Assembly: GCA_963966185.1 (NCBI GenBank)
Contig: CAWZYM010000300.1
Span: 801,001 to 865,000, forward strand
Direction of reading: 5' to 3'
Origin: Rhabditoides inermis
Taxonomy: Eukaryota > Nematoda > Chromadorea > Rhabditida > Rhabditidae
Length of the DNA: 64,000 nucleotides
Numbering within the stretch: position 1 is the stretch's first letter; every line of letters starts with the position of its first letter. Both the position numbers and the translations under genes were made by a program. The notes under the pieces were generated by a model that ran no database searches, was not told the origin of the DNA, and worked only from the letters and a program-made list of their open reading frames with translations. Below are positions 46,801-60,327 of the stretch, piece by piece.

Positions 46801-49057
46801 TTCTCTCTCTCTCTCTTCCTGTAATTTGTTTATTTGTGAACGAATCTTTGCAGGAGTCTGCTTTGCTTCTCTCGCCGGTGGAATGGGCGATATGTCCTAC
46901 CTCTCTCTCACCTCGCACTATCACAAGTCAGTATTTCTTCCCCCCTCTCCCTCTCTCTCTCCCTCTTCTCCCCTCTCTCACTCCCCCTGTCAGGTCGTCT
47001 ATCACTGCCTGGTCGTGTGGCACGGGTGCCTCGGGAATCCTTGCCAGTATTACCTACGCAGTCATGACAGACAAGTGAGTCGGGTCTTCCTTGGTAAGTA
47101 ATTGCCAGTTGAAGCCTCAGGCAATCTTGAAGTCATTTTAAATCAGTACAGTTTCAGCAACAGATACCAACACTATCTGATGAGTACAAAACGCAACGAT
47201 TTGATTTGAGATTTGATTTATTACACCACACAAGGACAATGGGCTGCAGTAGACTAGATGTGATGGTACTATAACCAGCATATGAGAATCTATGATGGCG
47301 ATGTGTCTTCTGGCTAACGTCTTCCATTGCAGGCGTCTTCTCTCCATGTCCCCCAAGCACACTCTTCTCGCCATGCTAGTCGTCCCAGCCATCACTATCA
47401 TCACGTAGGGGAATTTTGATTATAATTATACAATCAATAGATTATCAATCAAATAATCAAATATTCAATCAAATTCAAATATCAATCAAATCGTTACATT
47501 CAAATTATTTCATTCAGGTACTTTCTGGTTCTCGTGAAGACGGACGATATCAAGGTTCGTTGCTCACATTGGATGATTTTCATTATTTGTACTTTCAGTC
47601 TTCTGTGCAACTCTCAACCGTCGAAGAGAAAGGAGTGAAGAAGAATGTACGTGCACTTATCTCTTTTTTTATGCTACTCCAATTGCACTATTCGTGAATA
47701 GCGGTTAAAGGAACAGTGGCGACTTAATTCTGCAACTAGCTCTCTTGAACGCGCTTTACCACTCATGCAAAACGTTTGCCGGAGACAGGACTCGCGAGAT
47801 CTGTGCCACTACGGCGCACACTCGCATTGAGCCACCTAGTACTTAAGTAAACGGGCTTCTTTCGTCTGGCAATATGTGTTCTCTCGCCATTTCTGCAGTA
47901 TTAAAGAGTTCGATGGAATGGAAGTCGCGGCGGGACCAAATTTTGAGTTTGAAAAAAATGTTGCAACAGCGAGTTGCAACATTTGAAAGCAACGAATAAT
48001 CGTTGTGTTTTCTCATGAATCGATTAAGATTTGGGTTAGTATGATTCTTTCAAACATTCCGAGTCAAAAATAAGTCGCCAGTGTACCTTTAAAAAACTAA
48101 TTTTCCATTTTTATTTTGTTAGATAGAAGATCTCTCGGACGCGGCTGTGGCGCGCCATACCACGGCAGCTGAGAAACTGGTTATCATTAGGGTGGGGTCT
48201 ATTCTCTATTGACTGGTTACTGTATTCGTCATGGTTACGGTATTATCACTAGCTATTTCAGTCGCTACTCAAGTACATGATCCCTCTCGGACTCGTCTAC
48301 TTTGGAGAGTACTTTATCAATCAGGGACTTGTGAGTACACGTTCTCTTTCTCTCTCTCTCTCCTACTCTACTCTCTAGGTTGAACTGATAACCTTCGACT
48401 GTGTACACTCCTTTGCCGCCTCTCCCGAATCGCAGTTCCGCTGGTATCAGGTGAGCCTGCGTCACGCCTTGCGTCATTTCTTACTTGACTGTGTCTCACT
48501 CACTATGTCTATGTCTCGATGTCTTTACGTTATTTGCGTCATCCGTCTTTACTTGCGCCACTCGTTGCGTCACAGGTTGTCTACCAAGTGGGTGTGTTCC
48601 TGTCGCGTTGTTCCATCTCCATCATCGCCCTTCCACTGCCGGCTATTATATTCACAGCTGTGCTGCAGGTGAATACTTAGATACAGTAACCCTCATTGAG
48701 TGAGAGATCGAATTGTTTTGTTACCGTAGCCCTAGAAGATAAAATTCTTTAGATTCCGTAACCAAGTAATCAATAAATCGATATGATTCAGCTGGCGAAC
48801 GCGGTGTTATTCTACCTGATAGCCGTCTACCAGTTCGTCCCTCATATCCTCATCCTCATCGCACTCGTCCTATACGTCGTACGTTTCCCATCTGAAACGT
48901 AACCCATGAAACGTATCTAACACACAAGTATCCTGAAAAGTATATCATTATGTATGGGAAAGATTACAAAAAACTTATTAAACGAATTCAGGGCTGTCTG
49001 GGCGGCGGCAACTACGCCAACACGTTTGCGCACATTCACAAGCATGTGAGTGCGAGG

Positions 49058-49105
<48 letters not shown>

Positions 49106-49284
49106 AGGGAGGGAGGGAGGGAGAAAGGGAGGGAGAGAGAGAGATTCCCTCCCAGGTGGCGGCCGAGGACCGTGCGTTCGCCCTGGCAGTTGGCACGATG
49201 TCGGATACGGTGGGCATAATCACAGCCGCCCTCCTCGCAATTCCAGTCCACAACCACATATGTGCAATGCCCTACTATCAGTGA
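44866..49284 (+). CDS. cln-3: CLN3/battenin family lysosomal membrane protein, copy B
   Basis: A tandem paralogue of copy A with the same order of exons, about 425 residues. It starts MSAPSRTDYSAVRNWIAFW. Diagnostic segments are [132 protein letters not shown] and the end CAMPYYQ with TGA at 49282-49284. All exon phases agree. Copy B lacks the long Pro-rich loop exons of copy A ([13 protein letters not shown] and following). Its introns hold three TTAA-type inverted-repeat elements, and exon 3 begins one base after the target duplication of one of them. Confidence 0.95.
45837..46228. mobile_element. TTAA-flanked inverted-repeat element (first of an abutting pair)
   Basis: Ends are inverted (AGAGACATATACCACTCT at the left; AGAGTGGTATGTTCCT at the right) and TTAA flanks it at 45833-45836 and 46229-46232. 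An internal inverted repeat has GTACTGAGGGGACAATAT at 45980 and the complement near 46060. No coding capacity. Confidence 0.88.
46233..46455. mobile_element. TTAA-flanked inverted-repeat element (second of the pair)
   Basis: Ends AGGATGTATCCGGACAATGT and ACATTGTCCGGATAAATCCT are inverted copies. TTAA flanks it at 46229-46232 (shared with the previous element) and 46456-46459. A second inner inverted pair (TGGGGTCGCTTTCGTTCT and AGAACAAAAGCGACCCCA) lies inside. The cln-3 copy B exon starts at 46461, right after TTAAG. Confidence 0.88.
47709..48088. mobile_element. TTAA-flanked inverted-repeat element
   Basis: Ends AGGAACAGTGGCGACTTA and TAAGTCGCCAGTGTACCT are inverted copies, flanked by TTAA at 47705-47708 and 48089-48092. 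Inside, a stretch on the minus strand vaguely resembles a degraded tRNA. It lies in a cln-3 copy B intron. Confidence 0.88.
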
Positions 49285-49443: not shown

Positions 49444-49510
49444 ATGCGGCGTCTCGAGTGGCAGTGAGTTGCCCATTTCCCCGTCTTCTCCCAGTCTTGT
49501 TCCTCCACGC

Positions 49511-49551
<41 letters not shown>

Positions 49552-49702
49552 CCTCCCTCCCTCCTTCCCTTACCCTCTCCTTCCAGTCACCCGCTGCTCC
49601 TTCTCCTTCTCCTCCTCCATGGCTCACTTGGCTATAGCATGTTCAAGACGAACACGTGGCGGGAGGACCTCTACACCCGATTCAAGATCATATCGAGTGC
49701 GT

Positions 49703-49741
<39 letters not shown>

Positions 49742-51390
49742 TCCCTCTTTCTCTCTCACCCTCCCTCTCTGCAGCCAGCTGCGGCAACGAGTCCAAGTCT
49801 GATTTGGTGTTCGACGTGGAGCCAGTCGTTTCCTCGTTCGGTGGCTCCTTCGATGTCTTTGTCCACTATGCCGCCCTCATATTCGCCCCCGCAGATGTTT
49901 TCGTTCCCCGCGACCATCTACTCAAGGCCGCCATGAAGGTATCGATTGCATATCGATCGATTATCGATTGGATTTGCATAAACAATTTGAATGAGCGATC
50001 GATTATCGATTGTTTTCAGTTTGTGCTGGGCATGTCCGAGGACATTGGAGATGCGCACCGATTCGTCGACGACTTTTCCCATTTTATCAGTGTGAGTGGG
50101 CGGATATCAATTGATTATCGATTGAGTATCGATTGATTTTCAGCTGCACTACATGCTGTTTGCGGGCGGCGCCCTCTACATTGTCATTTCTGGCATTCTC
50201 ATAATCAGTGCCATCTGGCACCTCGCTGTCGACCCGCCAGAAAATACGGTATACTGTACTCTACGGTACCCTCAACACAGTATTCCAGGTGGAGGAAGCT
50301 CCTCGCATCGTGGTAACCACGACGAAGGCCGAGCCCAAGTCGCAGTCCGTGGTGGGCGACACTAAGACAGACTCGAAGGTGGCGTCGAAGGCCGGGACAG
50401 TGTCGGGGGAGTCGAAGCCAGTGTCGAAGAACAAGTCGAAGGAGGGGGGAGTGGAGGGGAGGACTGGCAGGGAGAACGAGAAGAGCGGGGTCAGCGGGAC
50501 CGGAGTGACCGGCACGGATACACGGGACCTGGAGGGCGGGGTGAGTGGATGGAGGGAAGGGGGGAGGGGAACGACAGCGCGGTCGATGAGGAAACAGTGA
50601 AATGACAGATCCCACTTTCCACATTGCGATGATTGCGTGCCACCGATGAATACATAGCCACGCCGTGCGTGAATGGCTGGCTAGTGGCACAGGTTCGATT
50701 CTACCGGAGAGAGAGAGAGAGAGAGAGAGAGGCGCTGGTTCGATTCTAGCGGCCGCTGTCACCATGTGCTGATTCGTTTCAATATTCGCACTACGAAGCG
50801 ATTCACTGATTTCGCTCACATTTTAATCACATTTTTTTATTTTTCACAGCATCGAGTCATGCATAAATGATCAGAGACAAAAAATATAAGTAATTTTAAA
50901 TTGTGCTAGATGGTTGACAATACGAATTCATTGTGAAAGAAAATGCGAAATGCAATGTGGAACATTTGCAGGCGTCTGCTGACAGACAGAATGCGGGAGG
51001 AGACAACAGTAGCACGAAGACTGTGTCCAAGTCGGAAAAGAAGAAGGAACGAGCTAAGAAGAGAGAGGAGAAGCCGAGACTGCCACACAACTGGTCCAAG
51101 CGGACCAGGTGCATAAATGTGAGCGGGAGAGAGAGGAAGAGAGAGGAAGAGAGAGAGGGACAGAAAGGAAAATAACAGGAAAATGGGGAAGAAAGAGGAA
51201 GAAGGAGAGGGAGAGAGAGGAGAGAGGGAGGACGAGGAAGAAAGTGCTCTGTTCAGGTGTGTCTGGTGTTGATCATGCTGCTCATCTGTTGTCTTCTCGC
51301 CATTGGGGCTGTCCTTCTTGTCGCATTCGAAATGGTCAAAACTCGACCCGGAAACTACAGAGAACTCATCGATGAAGAGATTAAAAGTAC

Positions 51391-51438
<48 letters not shown>

Positions 51439-51440
51439 TC

Positions 51441-51488
<48 letters not shown>

Positions 51489-51490
51489 TC

Positions 51491-51532
<42 letters not shown>

Positions 51533-54492
51533 GTCTCAAATACAAATACTGCGCTTTTCATACCATTTTAGATGCGTACGCGGATATCGAGGCAATTTAT
51601 TGCAATGTGAAATTCTACACCGAAAACGAACACAACAATCTATATGATCAACTGAAAGTCGTCTATAAAGATCAGGTTTGAGATGATCAAATAATCAGTC
51701 GCATCTTTGTTTTCGTTCAGACTGCAGATATCGGCGCGTTGATCGAGCGAGACACGCTGAAGATGTTCCCATGTGATGATATGGTGCGCACAATCAGGCT
51801 GTCCATGTGATGTGGTGATTTCAGCCCAAGCTGTCGGAGCTGATCTCGTTCTACATCGCAGACGCCGAGTCTGACGTGCCGCGTCTGCTGGATCAAGCCA
51901 TGTCCTACGTACGCATCAACTCACCGCCTCGTCTCACTCTCTTTTGTCCAGGTGAAACAGGACGAGGCGGAGCTTGGCGCCGATATCGTCGCGTTGTTTC
52001 AAAAGGAAATCGATATGAAGAAAACCTACTTCCACCGGCTCGACGAACTCCAAAACATCATCTCTCCCGTCAGTGTTATTTGATGTGATGTATTTATCTA
52101 TATTTAGGCTTTACTGAATTTCGAAGCAAACATTACGAACATAATAAGTACAGAAAAGTCTACGAATCCCACTATTTTAAATTCATCGAGGACTGTGATA
52201 CCAGCCGTCGCAGACCTCACTTCAAACTTCCTGTCCCATAAGGTTTCAAAACAATAGTTTATGATTTATAATAACAACAAACATTTTAGTTGCACTTCGA
52301 GTTGTTCAATCTGCAGAAACCGAAAGAGTTGTATACAGTGAGGGGACCTGGTTGTAACCATTTGTTGATTTCACTCGTTCAGCTCTCCTACTCGGACCTT
52401 CTGTTCTACTTTGCTTGTGGTCCAATGGGCCTGCTGCTCATCGCTTGTTTCCTCACTCTGATTCTATTCAAATGTGTCAAGAGTGAGTGATTCACGTGAT
52501 GCGAAACAGTCGGTTGTGTTCGTTCAGACGTACATGTCCTTTTCTCTTGCTCGGTTATGATGCTGCTATTTGTCCTCATACCAGCAGGGATCGCAACGTG
52601 AGAACCGGGTGCTCTACTCTAATCATCACTCATTCAGAGCTATCCTTATGATGATCGGCCCCTATCAGCTCACCCTCAACTTCCTCGAAGCCAAACTCCC
52701 CGACGTCATACACTCCACATTCAACATGTCCGGACAATACTTCGACACAATCAACAAAACGTACAGTTGGAAGTTGGGATGGTCAGAAATACCAGCTGTT
52801 CAGGACGATTGACGCCTGTTTCACTCCAGTCATGATGCAAAATGGGGAAATGAAAAAGTGCCTTTACTCGGAGCTGTTTCGAGACAGCTTGGAGATTTTC
52901 TACGATAACGGTGGGTTTGGACGTATGTAGTGATGAGAGTTGTGTTGTGCGCAGAGTTGCTGCGTCCTCTGAATGCGATGCGGGCGAGGGTCGAAGCCAC
53001 TCCACCCACGGCACAGTACATCAACAGCATGGACGCACTACTCAAGATTGCAGAGGTGGGCACACCACATATGAAAGTGACAAAAAGACACCGAGTCCGG
53101 AAAGGATGCTCCAAAATAGCTGCTAAAATGACTGGACTAACTAGTTTAGGTTCCCCCACGAGCCCACGAACTGTTGAGCTCGGGAATTTTTAATCCAATC
53201 CGTTTTGCGTATTTAAAAAAAGTAACTAGTGACCTACGAGTCTATTTGCAGACTGCCGACTTCAACTATCACACGGCGTATACTGCGATGAGTCGTCCCG
53301 ACTACATAGTGGAGTGCACCCATAACGTCATCGACAGGAGCGACCGGGTAGCCACATTGTTGTACTCCAGTAGACACCATAACTACACGCTGTTGTATGA
53401 ACACAGATTCGGTGGCTACTTTCATCCGTCAAAGCATTCCTTTTCATGTACATACTTGTGCAGGTGTCGAGTCTAACGTACGACTCTGTGTTGTGTCCGA
53501 GCGGAATCGAATCGAAGAAAGTGGATGACAGGATTCCAACTGCTATCAAGAATGTCATCTATAAGCTAGACGAACTGCAGGTATATGGGAAAAACATCAA
53601 TATATGTGCAAAAAGTGCTAGAAAATAGATGGCGCACGCGTCGCGTGTCCTGCGGCGGCGCGCTGCGGTCGCTGGCAGAGTGCCAACAATGCTGTTTAGG
53701 AGCGCGTGGCACCGACGAATGGCTCTCCGCTGTTCAAGTCTGTCATCTCCACCATGAAACACCGTCGACTGGAGACGGCGGAGGCTGTCAAGATGCTCAA
53801 GCCCATATTCGATCATGTAGACAAGATCAAGGTGAAGCGATCAATGGCATATCGTGTCATTACACTACTTTGTCCTTTTGCAGAAATCTACGTCACAAGC
53901 GTTGGATTTGGAGTTCCAGCTACCGAAAGTCTACTACAACATCATGCATATAATCGGAGACGAATTCAAATCCATATACTTACTGGTCGCAACGCAATGT
54001 GAGGAGAGAGGAGAGAGAAATAGAGAGAAATAGAGAGAGAGATAGAGAGAGAGAAGGGATATCTTCAGGCGCGGCGGCATTGGGTCTCATTCTCATCTCC
54101 TTTGCGATTGTGTTGATAGCATATCACCGCATCATCAACCCATATGTCGACTTTGAATTCTCGAGAGATAAGGGCAAGGTACTAAGCACACATAATAATT
54201 TGAATCAATGACATTGTTGATTTAGCGTTTCTTCGTTTTGGATAAGCACGTGCGGTACTGTAACGGAGTATGCATCTTCTTGGTGAGAGGAGAGAGAAAG
54301 ACAGATAAATCCCGAGACAGCTGCCGAGACAGCGAGAGATGATGTGACTTCAGGAACAAATGGCGAACGATCCGCGAATGATCTACGAGGAGTTTGAGAA
54401 TGCGTTCAGCAAGGTGTCACCGGATGGGATTCAACCAGATAACGTCTATCCTCCCAATCCGAACATCAAGAAGTTCCTCGCCGCACAGAAGA

Positions 54493-54545
<53 letters not shown>

Positions 54546-56273
54546 TTATCCATCATTCCAGAATCGCCTCCCTCCAAATACGCAGCCGATTCTCAATTCG
54601 TCTTTCGTTGATGTGGGATGGATGGGAGGTCATCTGTTCAATGGTAGCTGGATAGTCCCGGGACAGGGCAACAGGTCTGACTGATTCCTCCTCCCCCCTC
54701 CTCACTTCTCTTCCCTCTCTTCTCCTTCTCCTTCTACAACTTTTTTCCAGTTACATCGTCACCCCTTCTCCCACAGAGAAAACTGCCATTGACATCTGGC
54801 ATCTCGTCTTCCAGTGCGTTCGATCCACTTTATACATCAATGATAATTTCTTTTTTAGACACAAGTGCAAGGCTCTGGTGACATTCTGCGACTATGAAAA
54901 GGAGAAGGCATTCCAGTATTGGAATAAGGACAAGGAGCTCACATTCAAGAACATTCACTGCAAATACAGGGTCTCTCACCCGCTCTCTCTCTCTCCCTCT
55001 CCCGCTCTCTCTCTCCCTCTCTCTCTCCCTCTCTCTCCCTCTCTCTCCCTCTCTCTCCCCTCTTCTCTCCCTCTCCTCTCCCTCTCCCTCTCCCTCTCCC
55101 TCTCCCTCTCCCTCTCCCTCTCCCTCTCCCTCTCCCTCTCCCTCTCCCTCTCCCTCTCCCTCTCCCTCTCCCTCTCCCTCTCCCTCTCCCTCTCCCTCTC
55201 CCTCTCCCTCTCCCTCTCCCTCTCCCTCTCCCTCTCCCTCTCCCTCTCCCTCTCCCTCTCCCTCTCCCTCTCCCTCTCCCTCTCCCTCTCCCTCTCCCTC
55301 TCCCTCTCCCTCTCCCTCTCCCTCTCCCTCTCCCTCTCCCTCTCCCTCTCCCTCTCCCTCTCCCTCTCCCTCTCCCTCTCCTCTCCCTCTCCCTCTCCCT
55401 CTCTCTCCCTCTCCCTCTCTCTCCCTCCCTCTCCCTCTCCCTCTCCCTCTCCCTCTCCCTCTCCCTCTCCCTCTCCCTCTCCCTCTCCCTCTCCCTCTCC
55501 CTCTCCCTCTCCCTCTCCCTCTCCCTCTCCCTCTCCCTCTCCCTCTCCCTCTCCCTCTCTCTCCCTCCCTCTCCCTCTCCCTCTCCCTCTCCCTCTCCCT
55601 CTCCCTCTCCCTCTCCCTCTCCCTCTCCCTCTCCCTCTCCCTCTCCCTCTCCCTCTCCCTCTCCCTCTCCCTCTCCCTCTCCCTCTCCCTCTCCCTCTCC
55701 CTCTCCCTCTCCCTCTCCCTCTCCCTCTCCCTCTCCCTCTCCCTCTCCCTCTCCCTCTCCCTCTCCCTCTCCCTCTCCCTCTCCCTCTCCCTCTCCCTCT
55801 CCCTCTCCCTCTCCCTCTCCCTCTCCCTCTCCCTCTCCCTCTCCCTCTCCCTCTCTCTCTTTCCCTCTCTCCCTCCCTCTCTTTCCCTCTCTCCCTCCCT
55901 CTCTTTCCCTCTCTCCCTCCCTCTCTTTCCCTCTCTCCCTCCCTCTCTCTCTCCATTTGCTGATTTAGGTGAAAATGCAGAACGAGAGCACGTCCCGAGT
56001 TTCCGGCATGAAGCAGTACGTGTTCATGATCACCGAGTGAGTGAAAGTGTGAAAAGGGGGCGGGGCGTGAGTGGGCGTGGCTTCAGCGGGATCACGGAGC
56101 ACTACGTGGAGCTGCTCCACTACCCGAACTGGATCGGACAGAGTGTCGCCGAGTCGGGAGATCTCGCAGAAATCATGCGAATCCTGTACGAAGACTGCGG
56201 AAAGTCGGAGGGGAACGTGCTGGTACAGTGCCCAGATGGAGTCTCCAGGAGTGTCGCCCTCGTCGGTGGGAGA

Positions 56274-56317
<44 letters not shown>

Positions 56318-58722
56318 GAGAGAGGGAGAGAGAGGGAGAGAGAGGGGGGAGAGAAGGGGAAAGAGAGGGAGAGAGAGGGAGATACTCATTTTAGGCATCG
56401 ATATGCTTGTTTCGATCATCAACGAGAGTGAGAAGGGAGTGCCCGATCCGTTTGCCCTCATCAAGGTGAAAAGTCCTTCTCAATGATAAATCAATAAATC
56501 GATATTCCAGAGAATGCGGGAAGCGCGAGCCAATTGCTACACGAATTCTTGGCAGTTCTACGCAACCTATGTCGCCTACTTCGAATTCGCACTAATGGTT
56601 GACAATAGATAATCTATCGATAATCAATCGATACTTCAGAACAACGTCTACTCTCGCACGTCCAAGTTCTACACCTATCTGATGGAGAAGAGGAAGGAAT
56701 ACGCGACTAGACTGAAGGAGAGCAGGGAACTGGACAGTGACGAATCGATCAAGAAGAAGGCTCGTCTCTTTCCCCCTTCTCTATCCCCCTCTCTTTTCTC
56801 CCTCCCTCTCTCCCCCCTCTCTTTCTCCCTCTCTTTCTCCCTCTCTCCCTCCCTTCCTCCCTCCCTCACTCCCATCTTTCTCATATCTCTACTCAACCAG
56901 TGTTTTCAGAAGGCTAAAGTGGAGGAGAGTGTGCGCAAGTTTATGGATTTCAAGCCGGATAAGACTGAAGAAGCAAAAATGAAGCACGAGAGGAATCTGT
57001 CTGGACAGAGGGTCAAGGGACGGAAGCATCTGTGAGTGGGAGAGGAGAGACAGAGAGAGACAATGAGAGACAAAGAGAGGAACAGATAGACATAGAGGGG
57101 ATGCATCTAGTAATATAGGTAAAGACCAGGATATTCTGATTCTGATATGCTTATGAGAGTGTCTTTCTAGGTTTATGGTTTGCGAGCTGATTGGTTCGGG
57201 AACCTATGGTCGGGTGTACGCTGCTTATAAGGAGATCGTCAAGTGGGGTCCTGTGAAGAGGGAAGATGACTCTGACCCGCCCCCTGAGTTCTTCGCACTC
57301 AAGACTGAGAAACGAGGCATCAACACATCTACACTCTTGGTACTCTTCCCCCCTCTTTCTCTCCTCTTTCCCTTCATCTCTTTCTCTCTCTTTTCCCTCT
57401 CTCATTCTCTCTTTCAGATGGAGATTGCAGTCCTGCATGAGATCACTGCCCACCGAGCAGACAGGCGAACCCAGATTGTTGCCGCAATCGATAAGGGTAT
57501 CGATTGATATTGATTGGCGTATCACTGATTAGTTGTTTGTCAGGCCACACAGACGAGTTCGCTTTCTTGGTTATGACGATTGTGGGCAAGTCGCTAGCGG
57601 TGATTAAGAAAGCATATCCATCGATGAAGTGAGAGGAAAGAGAGAGGGAGAGAGAGAGAGAGGGAGGGAGAGGGAGAGAGGGAGGGAGAGGGAGAGAGAA
57701 GGAGAGAGAGCGAGAGAGAAGGAGAGAGAGGGAGAAAGAGAGAAAGAGGGATAGGATCAAATGTGAGAACGATTGCAGCTCGTTTTCTGCGATGTACTAC
57801 AACATCCAGGCTTTCAGTGCCATTCAACAGCTTCACAAGTGCGGATTCATCCATCGGTACGCACTTCTCCCTCTCTCTTTCTCCCTCCCTCTTTCTCCCT
57901 CCCTCTCTCTCTCTCCCTCCCTCTCTCTCTCTCCCCCCTCTCTATTCCTTTTTACAGAGACATCAAGCCGGGCAACTTTGCGATCGGACTGAATTCGATG
58001 CAGAAACTCGTGCACATTCTCGACTTTGGAATGGCACGAAAGGTGGTGGATGAAAACGGAAAAATCGTGCCGAGGACAGGCAAGGAGAAGGGATTCGTCG
58101 GGACTCTGCGGTAGGTAAAGAGAGGAATGGATGGAGAGAGAGGGGAAACAAAGGGAGAGAGAGAAGGGAGAAAGAGGGAGAGAGAAACAGAGGGGAGGAG
58201 AAGGAGAGAAAGGGGGAGAGAGAGGGAAGAGAGAGAGGGAGAGAGAGGGGGAGAAAGGGAGAGAGAGAGAGAGACTACAGGTATGCTTCGCGGGCTGCTC
58301 ACGAGCTGAACGAGCAGAATATGATGGACGACATCGAGTCGTGGCTATACATGGCCATTGAGGTGATCTCTCCCCTCTCCCTCCCTCCCATCCTCTCTCC
58401 CTCTCTCCCTCTCTCTCTCCGTCCCCTCCATCTCTCCCTCTCTCATCTCCTTTCTCCTAGATGTTCACGAAGCTCAGTTGGAGTGGCTGTGTGGATCGCC
58501 CGAAAGTACACGAGGCGAAGAAACATCTCATGACCGGATTGAGTGGGTTTGGTAGAATGAACTACGAAAACAGTTTATGGTTACTGTACTAGCATGATCG
58601 TCATGTTCAACTACATAGAATAATACTTACTTTCAGTTTGCGATGAGTTGGAGAAGTCTGGTGTGCCGACCACTTTCAGACTGCTCATCAAGTGAGTGGA
58701 AATGGAAGAAAGAAGAGAAGAG

Positions 58723-58771
<49 letters not shown>

Positions 58772-59231
58772 TCAGGGAAATCACTGAAGCCCCGGCTGGA
58801 ATTGAACCTAATCACATGAAACTGATGAGTATCATCGCGACGACGGATATGAGCGTTGAGGTAGAGTGAGAGAGGGAGAGAGGGAGAGAGGGAGAGAGGG
58901 AGATAGGGAGAGAGGGAGAGAGGGAGAGAGAGAGAGGGAGAGAGGGAGAGAGGGAGATAGGGAGAGAGGGAGAGAGGGAGAGAGAGAGAGGGAGAGAGGG
59001 AGAGAGGGAAAAGAGAGATGGAGAGAAGGAGAGAGAGAGAAGGAGAGAGAGAGAAGGAGAGAGGGAGATGACGTCATTTCAGGAGGACGTGTGTTGGCCA
59101 GTGGGCGACGCTATCAACGCTCCAATGGATCCGAATGCGACTCGTGACACCACAGTCGACAAGAAGGTAATCGATAATCGATCGATTATCGAACAATGTC
59201 TTTTTAGGCTGCCCTTGCGTCGTTCCGTTGA
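49444..59231 (+). CDS. Predicted five-TM / PTP-like / CK1-TTBK kinase fusion protein
   Basis: About 46 exons join with compatible phases to about 1,620 residues and no stop until TGA at 59229-59231. A signal peptide (start MRRLEW, then [17 protein letters not shown]) is followed by an extracellular segment, TM1 (about 50160-50230), a Lys/Ser-rich cytoplasmic loop, TM2 ([20 protein letters not shown]), an extracellular coiled region, TM3 and TM4 ([29 protein letters not shown]), a second large loop with N-glycosylation sequons, and TM5 ([16 protein letters not shown]). This topology is that of prominins, though sequence resemblance is weak. The tail continues without a break into a PTP-like domain and then a CK1/TTBK-like kinase, described separately. 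The alternative is two or three genes in an operon: MANDPRM at 54360 or a site in the linker could be a start. One junction (56764-56906) needs a GC-AG intron or read-through. Confidence 0.65.
51394..51530. repeat. CT microsatellite with internal duplication
   Basis: Three CT runs separated by two identical TTACTCTATTT spacers fill the intron between the exon after TM2 and the next exon, indicating a segmental duplication of about 50 bp within the microsatellite. Confidence 0.9.
54981..55954. repeat. CCCTCT hexamer array nearly 1 kb long in an intron
   Basis: Almost the whole intron between the PTP-domain exons ending KYR and starting VKMQN consists of CCCTCT units, well over a hundred, with a few CT-rich interruptions near 55380, 55420, 55560 and 55850-55945. 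The complementary strand is G-rich (AGAGGG). Long apparent reading frames here are artefacts of the repeat. Confidence 0.97.
56269..56382. repeat. GA-rich microsatellite in an intron of the fusion gene
   Basis: A purine-only tract of GA and GGGA units that fills the intron between the exon with the CX5R motif and the next. Confidence 0.9.
58724..58769. repeat. CA microsatellite in an intron of the fusion gene
   Basis: A near-perfect AC run of about 46 bp directly before the acceptor TTTCAG. Confidence 0.95.
58863..59067. repeat. GAGAGG-type microsatellite in an intron of the fusion gene
   Basis: About 200 bp of GA and GGGA units, including a duplicated block of roughly 70 bp (near 58865 and 58935). 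Confidence 0.9.
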
Positions 59232-60327
59232 TCTCCCATCGTTCAGAACTTATCACTTATACAACCCTTATCAATTATCACTTAGAACACTGTTAGTTGG
59301 CGTTATCAACTGTTTAGTGTTACAGTGTCTAACTTTAATCCATGCAACTCGCGAACGATTCAAAGAAGAATAAAGGAGTTGTATAGGGTATCCCCCATTT
59401 TCACGGTACGCGAATTATCGGCGGTCGGCCAGACAGGGGCGAAATGACGATCTTTTTATGCAAATTGGAGAAATATCGGGGTTTTACTCCAAAAACACGG
59501 CAAAAATGAAAGAAATTGAAAAATCGAAAACTAGAGTTCTGTGTGGACACTATCAAAGTATCTTCTCCCTTAAACTGGGTTCTGTAGCATGGATTTGAAG
59601 TGAGTTATTAAGTTTTCTAGATTTCACCTATTGAACATCCTCAAAAACGTGGTTATCGAACGATAATAAGAGAACTAAAACGAAATTCAAAAATCGAAAT
59701 CTAGAGTTCTATGGGGTCTGGGGATTCACACCACATATCCGAAAATTGGAAAGATTCATCAATTCCGGAAGAAGTTATTAGCTCTGAAAGGTGAGCAACT
59801 CTGCTTCATCAGAATTGCAAATCACCTTCATTTCCCTAAAATCAGACCGCAAAGCGCGCGACTCGCGCGGTCGAATGATCTTGCGCGGACCGATAGCGCG
59901 GCTAGATGCGATGAAATGATGTCTGGAAAATATGCGGCGAGATGGCTGCCATACCGTGAACCGGGGGGACACCCTATAAGTAGTTTCAAAGTTGTGTTGG
60001 ATTGAAAGTTGAACCATATGTGAAACGAGAACAGCTAAGTAGTAAATGCATCAGCGAAATCGGCTGAATTCTTATAAATGTGTGTTCGAAATGATTCAAT
60101 GTGATTCGGGGGCATGGCTGCTCATAATACCAACACATAACACGAATACAACCACATCGATTCGTGTCCCATTGCCCCCGATACGCCTATGATTATCAGA
60201 GATTCAAACGGTTTCGGCAGAATATTGTCGATTCACAAAAGATCCGCTTTTATAGCGGATACTGACGACAAAGGCTGCAGGCGTGATTGTTCAGCTAGTC
60301 TATATTCCATTTTCTATCGATCGCGCG
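59232..60327. other. Intergenic region with a MITE
   Basis: More than half is the TA-flanked inverted-repeat element at 59384-59976. The remaining DNA holds the presumed 3' end of the kinase gene (AATAAA near 59369) and the C2-gene promoter. No further gene seen. Confidence 0.5.
59384..59976. mobile_element. TA-flanked MITE (Tc1/mariner-like ends)
   Basis: A 593 bp element with imperfect inverted ends of about 25 bp: TAGGGTATCCCCC and TTCACGGTA at the left, TACCGTGAA and GGGGGGACACCCTA at the right, flanked by TA on both sides. Two internal direct repeats contain CTAGAGTTCT (near 59531 and 59701). No transposase frame is visible. Confidence 0.85.

What the first reader, a model, noticed from the sequence alone, without database searches (positions are those of the whole stretch)
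49444..59231. One continuous gene predicted to encode five-TM receptor, pseudophosphatase and kinase
Splicing by consensus sites keeps one frame from the signal peptide at 49444, through five transmembrane helices, into a PTP-like domain and then an intact CK1/TTBK-like kinase, with TGA only at 59229. The critical junctions are phase-compatible: the exon after TM5 (54226-54282, phase 0) into the PTP exon at 54354, and the linker exon ending AAG-CAT-CT into the kinase exon at 57172. A topologically prominin-like protein with both a phosphotyrosine-recognition domain and a Ser/Thr kinase on its tail would be a new receptor design. Sperm-enriched expansions of both PTPs and TTBK/CK1 kinases in nematodes suggest a reproductive role, but that is inference.
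Basis: partly seen in the sequence, partly recalled or inferred. Interest (0 to 1): 0.88.

Follow-up and report, generated by a model that had tools for sequence, protein, structure and literature searches.

The report
Five-pass receptor with phosphatase-kinase tail
In this nematode one gene joins a five-pass membrane receptor to a degenerate tyrosine-phosphatase domain and an apparently intact protein kinase, and dozens of related genes in the same genome appear to be built the same way, which points to a large family of signalling receptors of a design I could not find described.

Summary
A 46-exon model (49444-59231, 1579 aa, no internal stop) runs from a signal peptide through five TM helices, a PTP domain (Pfam 7e-32) and a TTBK/CK1-like kinase (1e-17). 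Frame continuity alone proves little: a naive finder also fuses the upstream CLN3 gene to it, and SL2 genes, hence possible operons, exist here. Relatives in the same genome settle it. Of 92 kinase loci clustered from listed hits, 68 have a PTP just upstream on the same strand, 0 downstream, 0 on the other strand. In 20 of 20 fetched relatives the modelled PTP-kinase intron is 36-53 nt; in 19 of 20 the 57-nt juxtamembrane exon recurs, and the next intron is 35-52 nt in the 16 measured. Relatives carry on one exon the residues around the window's PTP/kinase intron. A receptor profile from 17 relatives hits the window receptor at 1e-23. So this is one gene, a divergent member of a large 5-TM/PTP/kinase family. 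"Prominin-like" is topology only. The window PTP has lost its general acid; 16 of 17 relatives keep it. No RNA evidence; ligand and tissue unknown.

The parts
49444..59231 (+). whole gene, 46 exons, 1579 codons plus stop
   Evidence: spliced model without internal stop; alignment with 17 relatives from ectodomain to tail
49444..49696 (+). exons 1-2: predicted signal peptide ([22 protein letters not shown]) and start of ectodomain
   Evidence: translation; exon 1 is the least certain part and is not supported by relatives
50174..50230 (+). TM1
   Evidence: hydropathy; aligned with TM1 of relatives
50289..51118 (+). exons 6-7: Lys/Ser-rich cytoplasmic loop 1, longer than in relatives
51266..51322 (+). 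TM2
51323..52409 (+). large extracellular loop 1 (exons 8-15); Cys344 conserved in 16 of 17 relatives
52410..52466 (+). TM3
52536..52592 (+). TM4
52593..54064 (+). large extracellular loop 2; Cys620 17 of 17, Cys706 16 of 17, Cys727 15 of 17 conserved
54069..54125 (+). TM5
54226..54282 (+). 57-nt phase-0 juxtamembrane exon [19 protein letters not shown]; counterpart found in 19 of 20 relatives
54354..56597 (+). PTP domain (exons 26-33)
   Evidence: PF00102 7.2e-32; PDB receptor PTP epsilon 2.3e-19
56226..56249 (+). PTP loop QCPDGVSR: Cys and Arg kept, Gln in place of the usual His
56640..57031 (+). linker exons 34-35; the end of exon 35 ([12 protein letters not shown]) aligns with the start of the relatives' kinase exon
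56760..56909 (+). intron 34, GC-AG, weak donor, no stop in frame
57171..59231 (+). TTBK/CK1-like kinase (exons 36-46) and C-tail DKKAALASFR, stop 59229-59231
   Evidence: PF00069 1.2e-17; PDB TTBK1 1.1e-25
59369..59374 (+). AATAAA, 138 nt after the stop codon; the only other AATAAA within the gene is at 56493 in a PTP intron; the two disputed junctions hold only variants (GATAAA 54304, AATATA 57112)

Best explanation
One gene codes a plasma-membrane receptor: signal peptide, N-terminus outside, five TM passes with two large extracellular loops holding conserved Cys, and a cytoplasmic tail with a PTP domain followed by a TTBK/CK1-like Ser/Thr kinase. It belongs to a large paralogous family in this genome. 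Most likely mechanism (inferred, about 0.4): the loops bind a partner; the PTP domain, which in this member keeps the Cys and Arg of the active site but has lost the general acid, holds or shields phosphotyrosine on a partner or on the tail, and so places or gates the kinase, which phosphorylates nearby Ser/Thr sites. In most relatives the PTP may still dephosphorylate. Shown: gene structure, homology, motif state, mostly low dN/dS among relatives. Inferred: membrane orientation, binding, catalysis, coupling.
For: 46 exons in one frame. PTP and kinase Pfam/PDB matches. 20 of 20 relatives have PTP then kinase in the same order and strand. Modelled PTP-kinase introns 36-53 nt in 20 of 20, phase 0, and 16 of 20 have no in-frame Met before the Gly loop. 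The 57-nt juxtamembrane exon in 19 of 20, next intron 35-52 nt in the 16 measured. Relatives carry on one exon the residues around the window's intron 35. Receptor profile E 1.3e-23, best of 2000 shuffles 0.075. 5 of 7 extracellular Cys of the window gene conserved in 15-17 of 17 relatives at 15-18% identity. Kinase motifs GSGTYG, ALK, HRDIKPGN, DFG intact; HRD and DFG readable in the DNA of 20 of 20 relatives.
Against: No transcript data. Relative models come from my own simple gene finder (minimum intron 36 nt, partly trained on its own output); 3 of 20 PTP-kinase introns use poor donors (L030, L034, L035) and the models of L036 and L048 break at HRD/DFG although the DNA has both. Topology is by hydropathy only, and N-glycosylation sequons are not enriched outside (6 in 567 residues against 10 in 878 cytoplasmic). 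No ligand, tissue, activity or structure was tested. 23 kinase loci besides the window gene showed no PTP upstream at this sensitivity; at least one is a miss (C176:22018 has a PTP), others are probably plain kinases.
Confidence: 0.82

Rival explanations
1. Separate genes in an SL2-type operon: a 5-TM gene, a PTP gene (Met after 54354) and a kinase gene (Met 4 nt after the acceptor at 57170), wrongly chained by eye.
For: SL2 RNA genes are present (12 matches over cut-off). Reading past exon 35 stops at once (TGA 57034-57036), 134 nt before the acceptor, an operon-like spacing; Met codons lie just after both acceptors. Variant poly(A) hexamers lie in both junctions (GATAAA, AATATA). A naive finder also chains across the CLN3 gene end.
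Against: In relatives the matching introns are modelled at 35-53 nt and mostly without a start codon; the residues around intron 35 lie on one exon in relatives; no AATAAA in either junction; reading past exon 25 stops only about 12 nt before the acceptor.
Confidence: 0.04
2. PTP and kinase are one gene, but the 5-TM part is a separate upstream gene.
For: The receptor part has no known family and diverges most (15-18% identity in the loops). If exon 25 is skipped, as the finder does at its strictest setting, a stop lies about 142 nt before the PTP acceptor.
Against: The 57-nt exon that bridges the two recurs between splice sites in 19 of 20 relatives, with short introns after it in the 16 measured; receptor-part matches lie upstream of the kinase in 40 of 92 kinase loci.
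Confidence: 0.03
3. The window copy is a decaying pseudogene of the family, as hinted by its degenerate PTP.
For: Loss of the PTP general acid and His, a weak GC donor, long simple-repeat introns. At least one relative is interrupted by an insertion (L033).
Against: 1579 codons without stop or frameshift, codon-position bias in all three parts, kinase catalytic residues intact.
Confidence: 0.06

Closest known systems
Prominins (CD133, Pfam PF05478)
   Same: Five TM helices, extracellular N-terminus, two large extracellular loops, cytoplasmic tail (prominin topology from passages of PMC10967083).
   Different: No sequence match; no Cys cluster after TM1; first cytoplasmic loop long in the window gene; tail carries two signalling domains.
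Receptor protein tyrosine phosphatases (RPTP epsilon/alpha, CD45)
   Same: PTP domain on the cytoplasmic tail; best solved relatives by sequence. Degenerate PTP domains are known in this group (recalled).
   Different: Five TM passes, not one; a Ser/Thr kinase follows; the general acid is lost (TM number of RPTPs recalled).
Tau-tubulin kinases / CK1 family
   Same: Kinase domain, best PDB match TTBK1 1.1e-25; catalytic motifs intact.
   Different: Normally not membrane receptors and not joined to a PTP domain (recalled).
Single-pass receptor Ser/Thr kinases (TGF-beta type; recalled)
   Same: Membrane receptor with a Ser/Thr kinase tail.
   Different: Kinase subfamily, TM number, ectodomain and extra PTP domain all differ.

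Membership tests
Prominin (PF05478) | sequence match to the family profile | tested here: not met
   no match in window receptor, none in 3 of 17 modelled relatives submitted, none in the genome at E <= 0.001 by exon-wise search (short exons limit it and no control genome bears a prominin)
Prominin (PF05478) | 5-TM topology with two large extracellular loops | tested here: met
   hydropathy and spacing in the window gene; by my combined reading all five segments in 11 of 17 relatives and four in the other 6
Prominin (PF05478) | Cys cluster at the TM1/first cytoplasmic loop border | tested here: not met
   window sequence there reads [18 protein letters not shown]
PTP domain | family profile match | tested here: met
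   PF00102 7.2e-32
PTP domain, active enzyme | Cys-X5-Arg loop | tested here: met
   QCPDGVSR; Cys and Arg in 17 of 17 relatives too
PTP domain, active enzyme | general-acid Asp of the WPD loop | tested here: not met
   W-I-G in the window gene; Asp in 16 of 17 relatives, Asn in one
TTBK/CK1-like kinase | profile and closest solved relatives | tested here: met
   PF00069 1.2e-17, TTBK1 1.1e-25
TTBK/CK1-like kinase, active enzyme | Gly loop, Lys, HRD, DFG | tested here: met
   all present; activity itself not testable
SL2 operon gene boundary | intercistronic gap of about 100 nt with poly(A) site and trans-splice acceptor | tested here: not met
   homologous gaps are modelled at 35-53 nt in relatives; in the window itself the gaps (71 and 139 nt) hold no AATAAA, only variants

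The most novel reading that the evidence does not exclude
The family is a diversified recognition system: dozens of five-pass receptors whose extracellular loops are old and divergent while their TM1-2 and TM5-PTP-kinase halves are kept alike by gene conversion, each receptor carrying both an eraser (PTP) and a writer (Ser/Thr kinase) of phosphorylation on one chain, with the window gene a PTP-dead member that acts as a kinase-only or trapping version. It could serve gamete, self or pathogen recognition in this nematode lineage.
Probability: 0.25. Interest if true: 0.93.

Novelty: categorically new. Interest (0 to 1): 0.82.

Why it matters
I found no report of a receptor that carries a tyrosine-phosphatase domain and a Ser/Thr kinase on the tail of a multi-pass protein (paper searches; open-licence PMC only). 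Here the PTP-kinase pair occurs at 68 or more loci of one nematode genome, 40 of the 92 kinase loci having a receptor-part match upstream. Members that keep the PTP general acid and the window member that lost it give a direct test of what a phosphatase next to a kinase on one receptor does. The loop/tail mosaic seen in some pairs suggests a recognition system worth testing.

Tried and rejected
Protein database searches with the full protein, the receptor part and the juxtamembrane-PTP-linker part: the full protein gave 4 matches among 4773 candidates, all kinase proteins; the other two gave none (7993 and 2466 candidates). That search needs shared 5-residue words, so distant orthologs may be missed; it is not proof that other nematodes lack the family. 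Pfam/NCBIfam for the receptor: nothing over cut-off. PDB with a single receptor sequence and with a 4-sequence profile: none, and two matches at E 1.4 and 3.7. Species name by contig number in papers and through the Parapristionchus paper (passages): not found. A reproductive role was considered; PMC8480184 (passages only) names kinases among regionally enriched domains but the passages say nothing on this design.

A naive single-gene finder was rejected as proof of one gene because it fuses CLN3 as well and cannot output two genes.
Full report
What is there. The hand-spliced model has 46 exons, 49444-59231, 1579 codons and no internal stop. 44 of 45 introns are GT-AG. All three parts show codon-position GC bias. 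Pfam finds a PTP domain (7.2e-32) and a protein kinase (1.2e-17), and nothing over cut-off for the first 884 residues. Hydropathy gives five TM segments: one after an N-terminal ectodomain, a second, a long loop, a close pair, a long loop, the fifth, then the tail.

Why the chain needed a second test. A simple gene finder trained on this model joins the upstream gene, whose end is CLN3 by Pfam (3.6e-55), to the receptor at all three settings tried, and at the strictest one it skips exon 25. It cannot output two genes. SL2 RNA genes are in this genome, 12 matches over cut-off, so operons are likely. Reading past exon 35 gives a stop at once, with an operon-like 134 nt to the next acceptor and a Met 4 nt after it. 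Frame continuity is therefore weak evidence on its own.

Relatives. Searching the genome with the kinase part and the PTP family gave hits that pair up: of 92 kinase loci clustered from the listed hits, the window gene among them, 68 have a PTP hit within 2.8 kb upstream on the same strand, 0 downstream and 0 on the other strand. The window gene itself is not among the 68, because its short PTP exons do not appear's listing. 40 of 92 have a match to the receptor-side half of a relative's TM3-to-PTP piece upstream, 32 if only matches that start before residue 310 are taken (using). The listings were capped, so these are lower bounds; identical-looking pairs of hits (for example C21/C346) could be haplotypes, so the number of genes is uncertain. 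I fetched 20 relatives; in 20 of 20 the PTP precedes the kinase on the same strand. Upstream of the PTP they show conserved hydrophobic segments with the spacing of the window gene; by my combined reading, 11 of 17 modelled relatives show all five and 6 show four.

The junctions. PTP to kinase: in 20 of 20 relatives the modelled kinase exon follows an intron of 36-53 nt, phase 0; in 16 of 20 there is no in-frame Met before the Gly loop (L036, L044, L045, L046 have one); in L030, L034 and L035 the finder used poor donors, so those lengths are rough. That exon (KLTGTYLKGCHDEYLLGKLLGSGTYG in L031) aligns without gaps with [25 protein letters not shown] of the window gene, that is, across its intron 35. 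Receptor to PTP: the 57-nt exon (RGLKVENQMMYGNSVGVSL and the like against [19 protein letters not shown]) is found between an AG and a GT or GC in 19 of 20 relatives (not in L030), and the intron after it is 35-52 nt in the 16 where my pattern recognised the next exon (not L040-L042). Such gaps are too short for an operon boundary (general knowledge of nematode operons, recalled). The window's own gaps are 71 and 139 nt.

Homology of the receptor. The 17 aligned relatives match the window gene from ectodomain to C-tail. Median identity is 15-18% in ectodomain and loops, 38% in the PTP and 45% in the kinase. 5 of 7 extracellular Cys of the window gene are conserved in 15-17 of 17. A profile built from the 17 without the window gene hits its receptor part at 1.3e-23; the best of 2000 shuffles has 0.075. 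Against the topology stands that N-glycosylation sequons are not enriched outside (6 in 567 residues against 10 in 878).

State of the enzymes. The window PTP keeps Cys and Arg (QCPDGVSR) but has Gln for His and W-I-G where active enzymes have W-P-D (recalled consensus). Relatives keep Cys and Arg in 17 of 17, His in 12 of 17 (Gln in 5) and Asp in 16 of 17 (Asn in L037), with Q, K or M in place of Pro. So the family may hold active phosphatases and the window gene a dead one. The kinase has all motifs; the Lys is kept in 17 of 17 relatives, and HRD and DFG were aligned in 15 of 17 but are readable in the DNA of 20 of 20, so the two misses (L036, L048) are errors of my models.

Selection and mosaics. 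In 12 pairs of relatives, not independent, 61 of 69 domain values of dN/dS are below 0.5 (my recount). The 8 others: linker 2.75 (L043/L048), 1.1 (L040/L042), 0.93 (L041/L042); kinase 1.06 at a dS of 0.006 (L031/L032); N-ectodomain 0.70, 0.77, 0.56, 0.76 in four pairs. Codons next to gaps or in stretches under 35% local identity were left out, which lowers dN. In the three pairs of L040, L041 and L042 and in L031/L034 the TM1-2 part (mostly 74-95%) and the TM5-PTP-kinase part with its introns (84-94%) are alike in DNA, while the stretch between, loop 1 to loop 2, is 66-71% or not alignable, apart from one 127-nt piece at 88% in L040/L041. This fits gene conversion of the flanks with old, divergent loops; L038/L039 (90% throughout) and L036/L047 (67-71% throughout) do not show it.

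Known or not. The receptor part matches no Pfam family over cut-off, no PDB chain and no protein in the searched database. PF05478 has no match in this genome by exon-wise search. Paper searches found no such architecture (listings only, except passages of PMC8480184, PMC9526060 and PMC10967083). Genome annotation databases were not available, so a predicted protein of this design may exist there unremarked.

Mechanism. The likely reading is a receptor whose loops bind a partner and whose tail reads or removes phosphotyrosine and writes phosphoserine/threonine. In the window gene the phosphatase step is probably lost and the domain would act as a binding or gating module for the kinase. This is inference from anatomy; nothing here shows ligand, activity or tissue.

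Noticed in passing
window about 47300-49284: A CLN3 (battenin) gene ends about 160 nt upstream of the receptor's ATG on the same strand; with SL2 genes in the genome the two could form an operon.
   Followed up: partly
L040, L041, L042, L031, L034: Mosaic divergence: TM1-2 and TM5-PTP-kinase parts mostly 74-95% alike in DNA, the extracellular loop stretch between them 66-71% or unalignable.
   Followed up: partly
L033: The automatic model of this relative runs into a reverse-transcriptase-like insertion in the receptor part, so some family members are probably broken.
   Followed up: no
window 54971-55968: Intron 29 of the gene is about 1 kb of almost pure CTCTCC-type repeat.
   Followed up: no
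L046 and L047, donor after the 57-nt exon: GC donors (gcaagt) occur in relatives too, so GC-AG introns are probably used in this family.
   Followed up: no
G000 contigs C176, C187, C79, C151, C104: Kinase hits sit in clusters of several loci per contig, as expected of tandem expansion.
   Followed up: no
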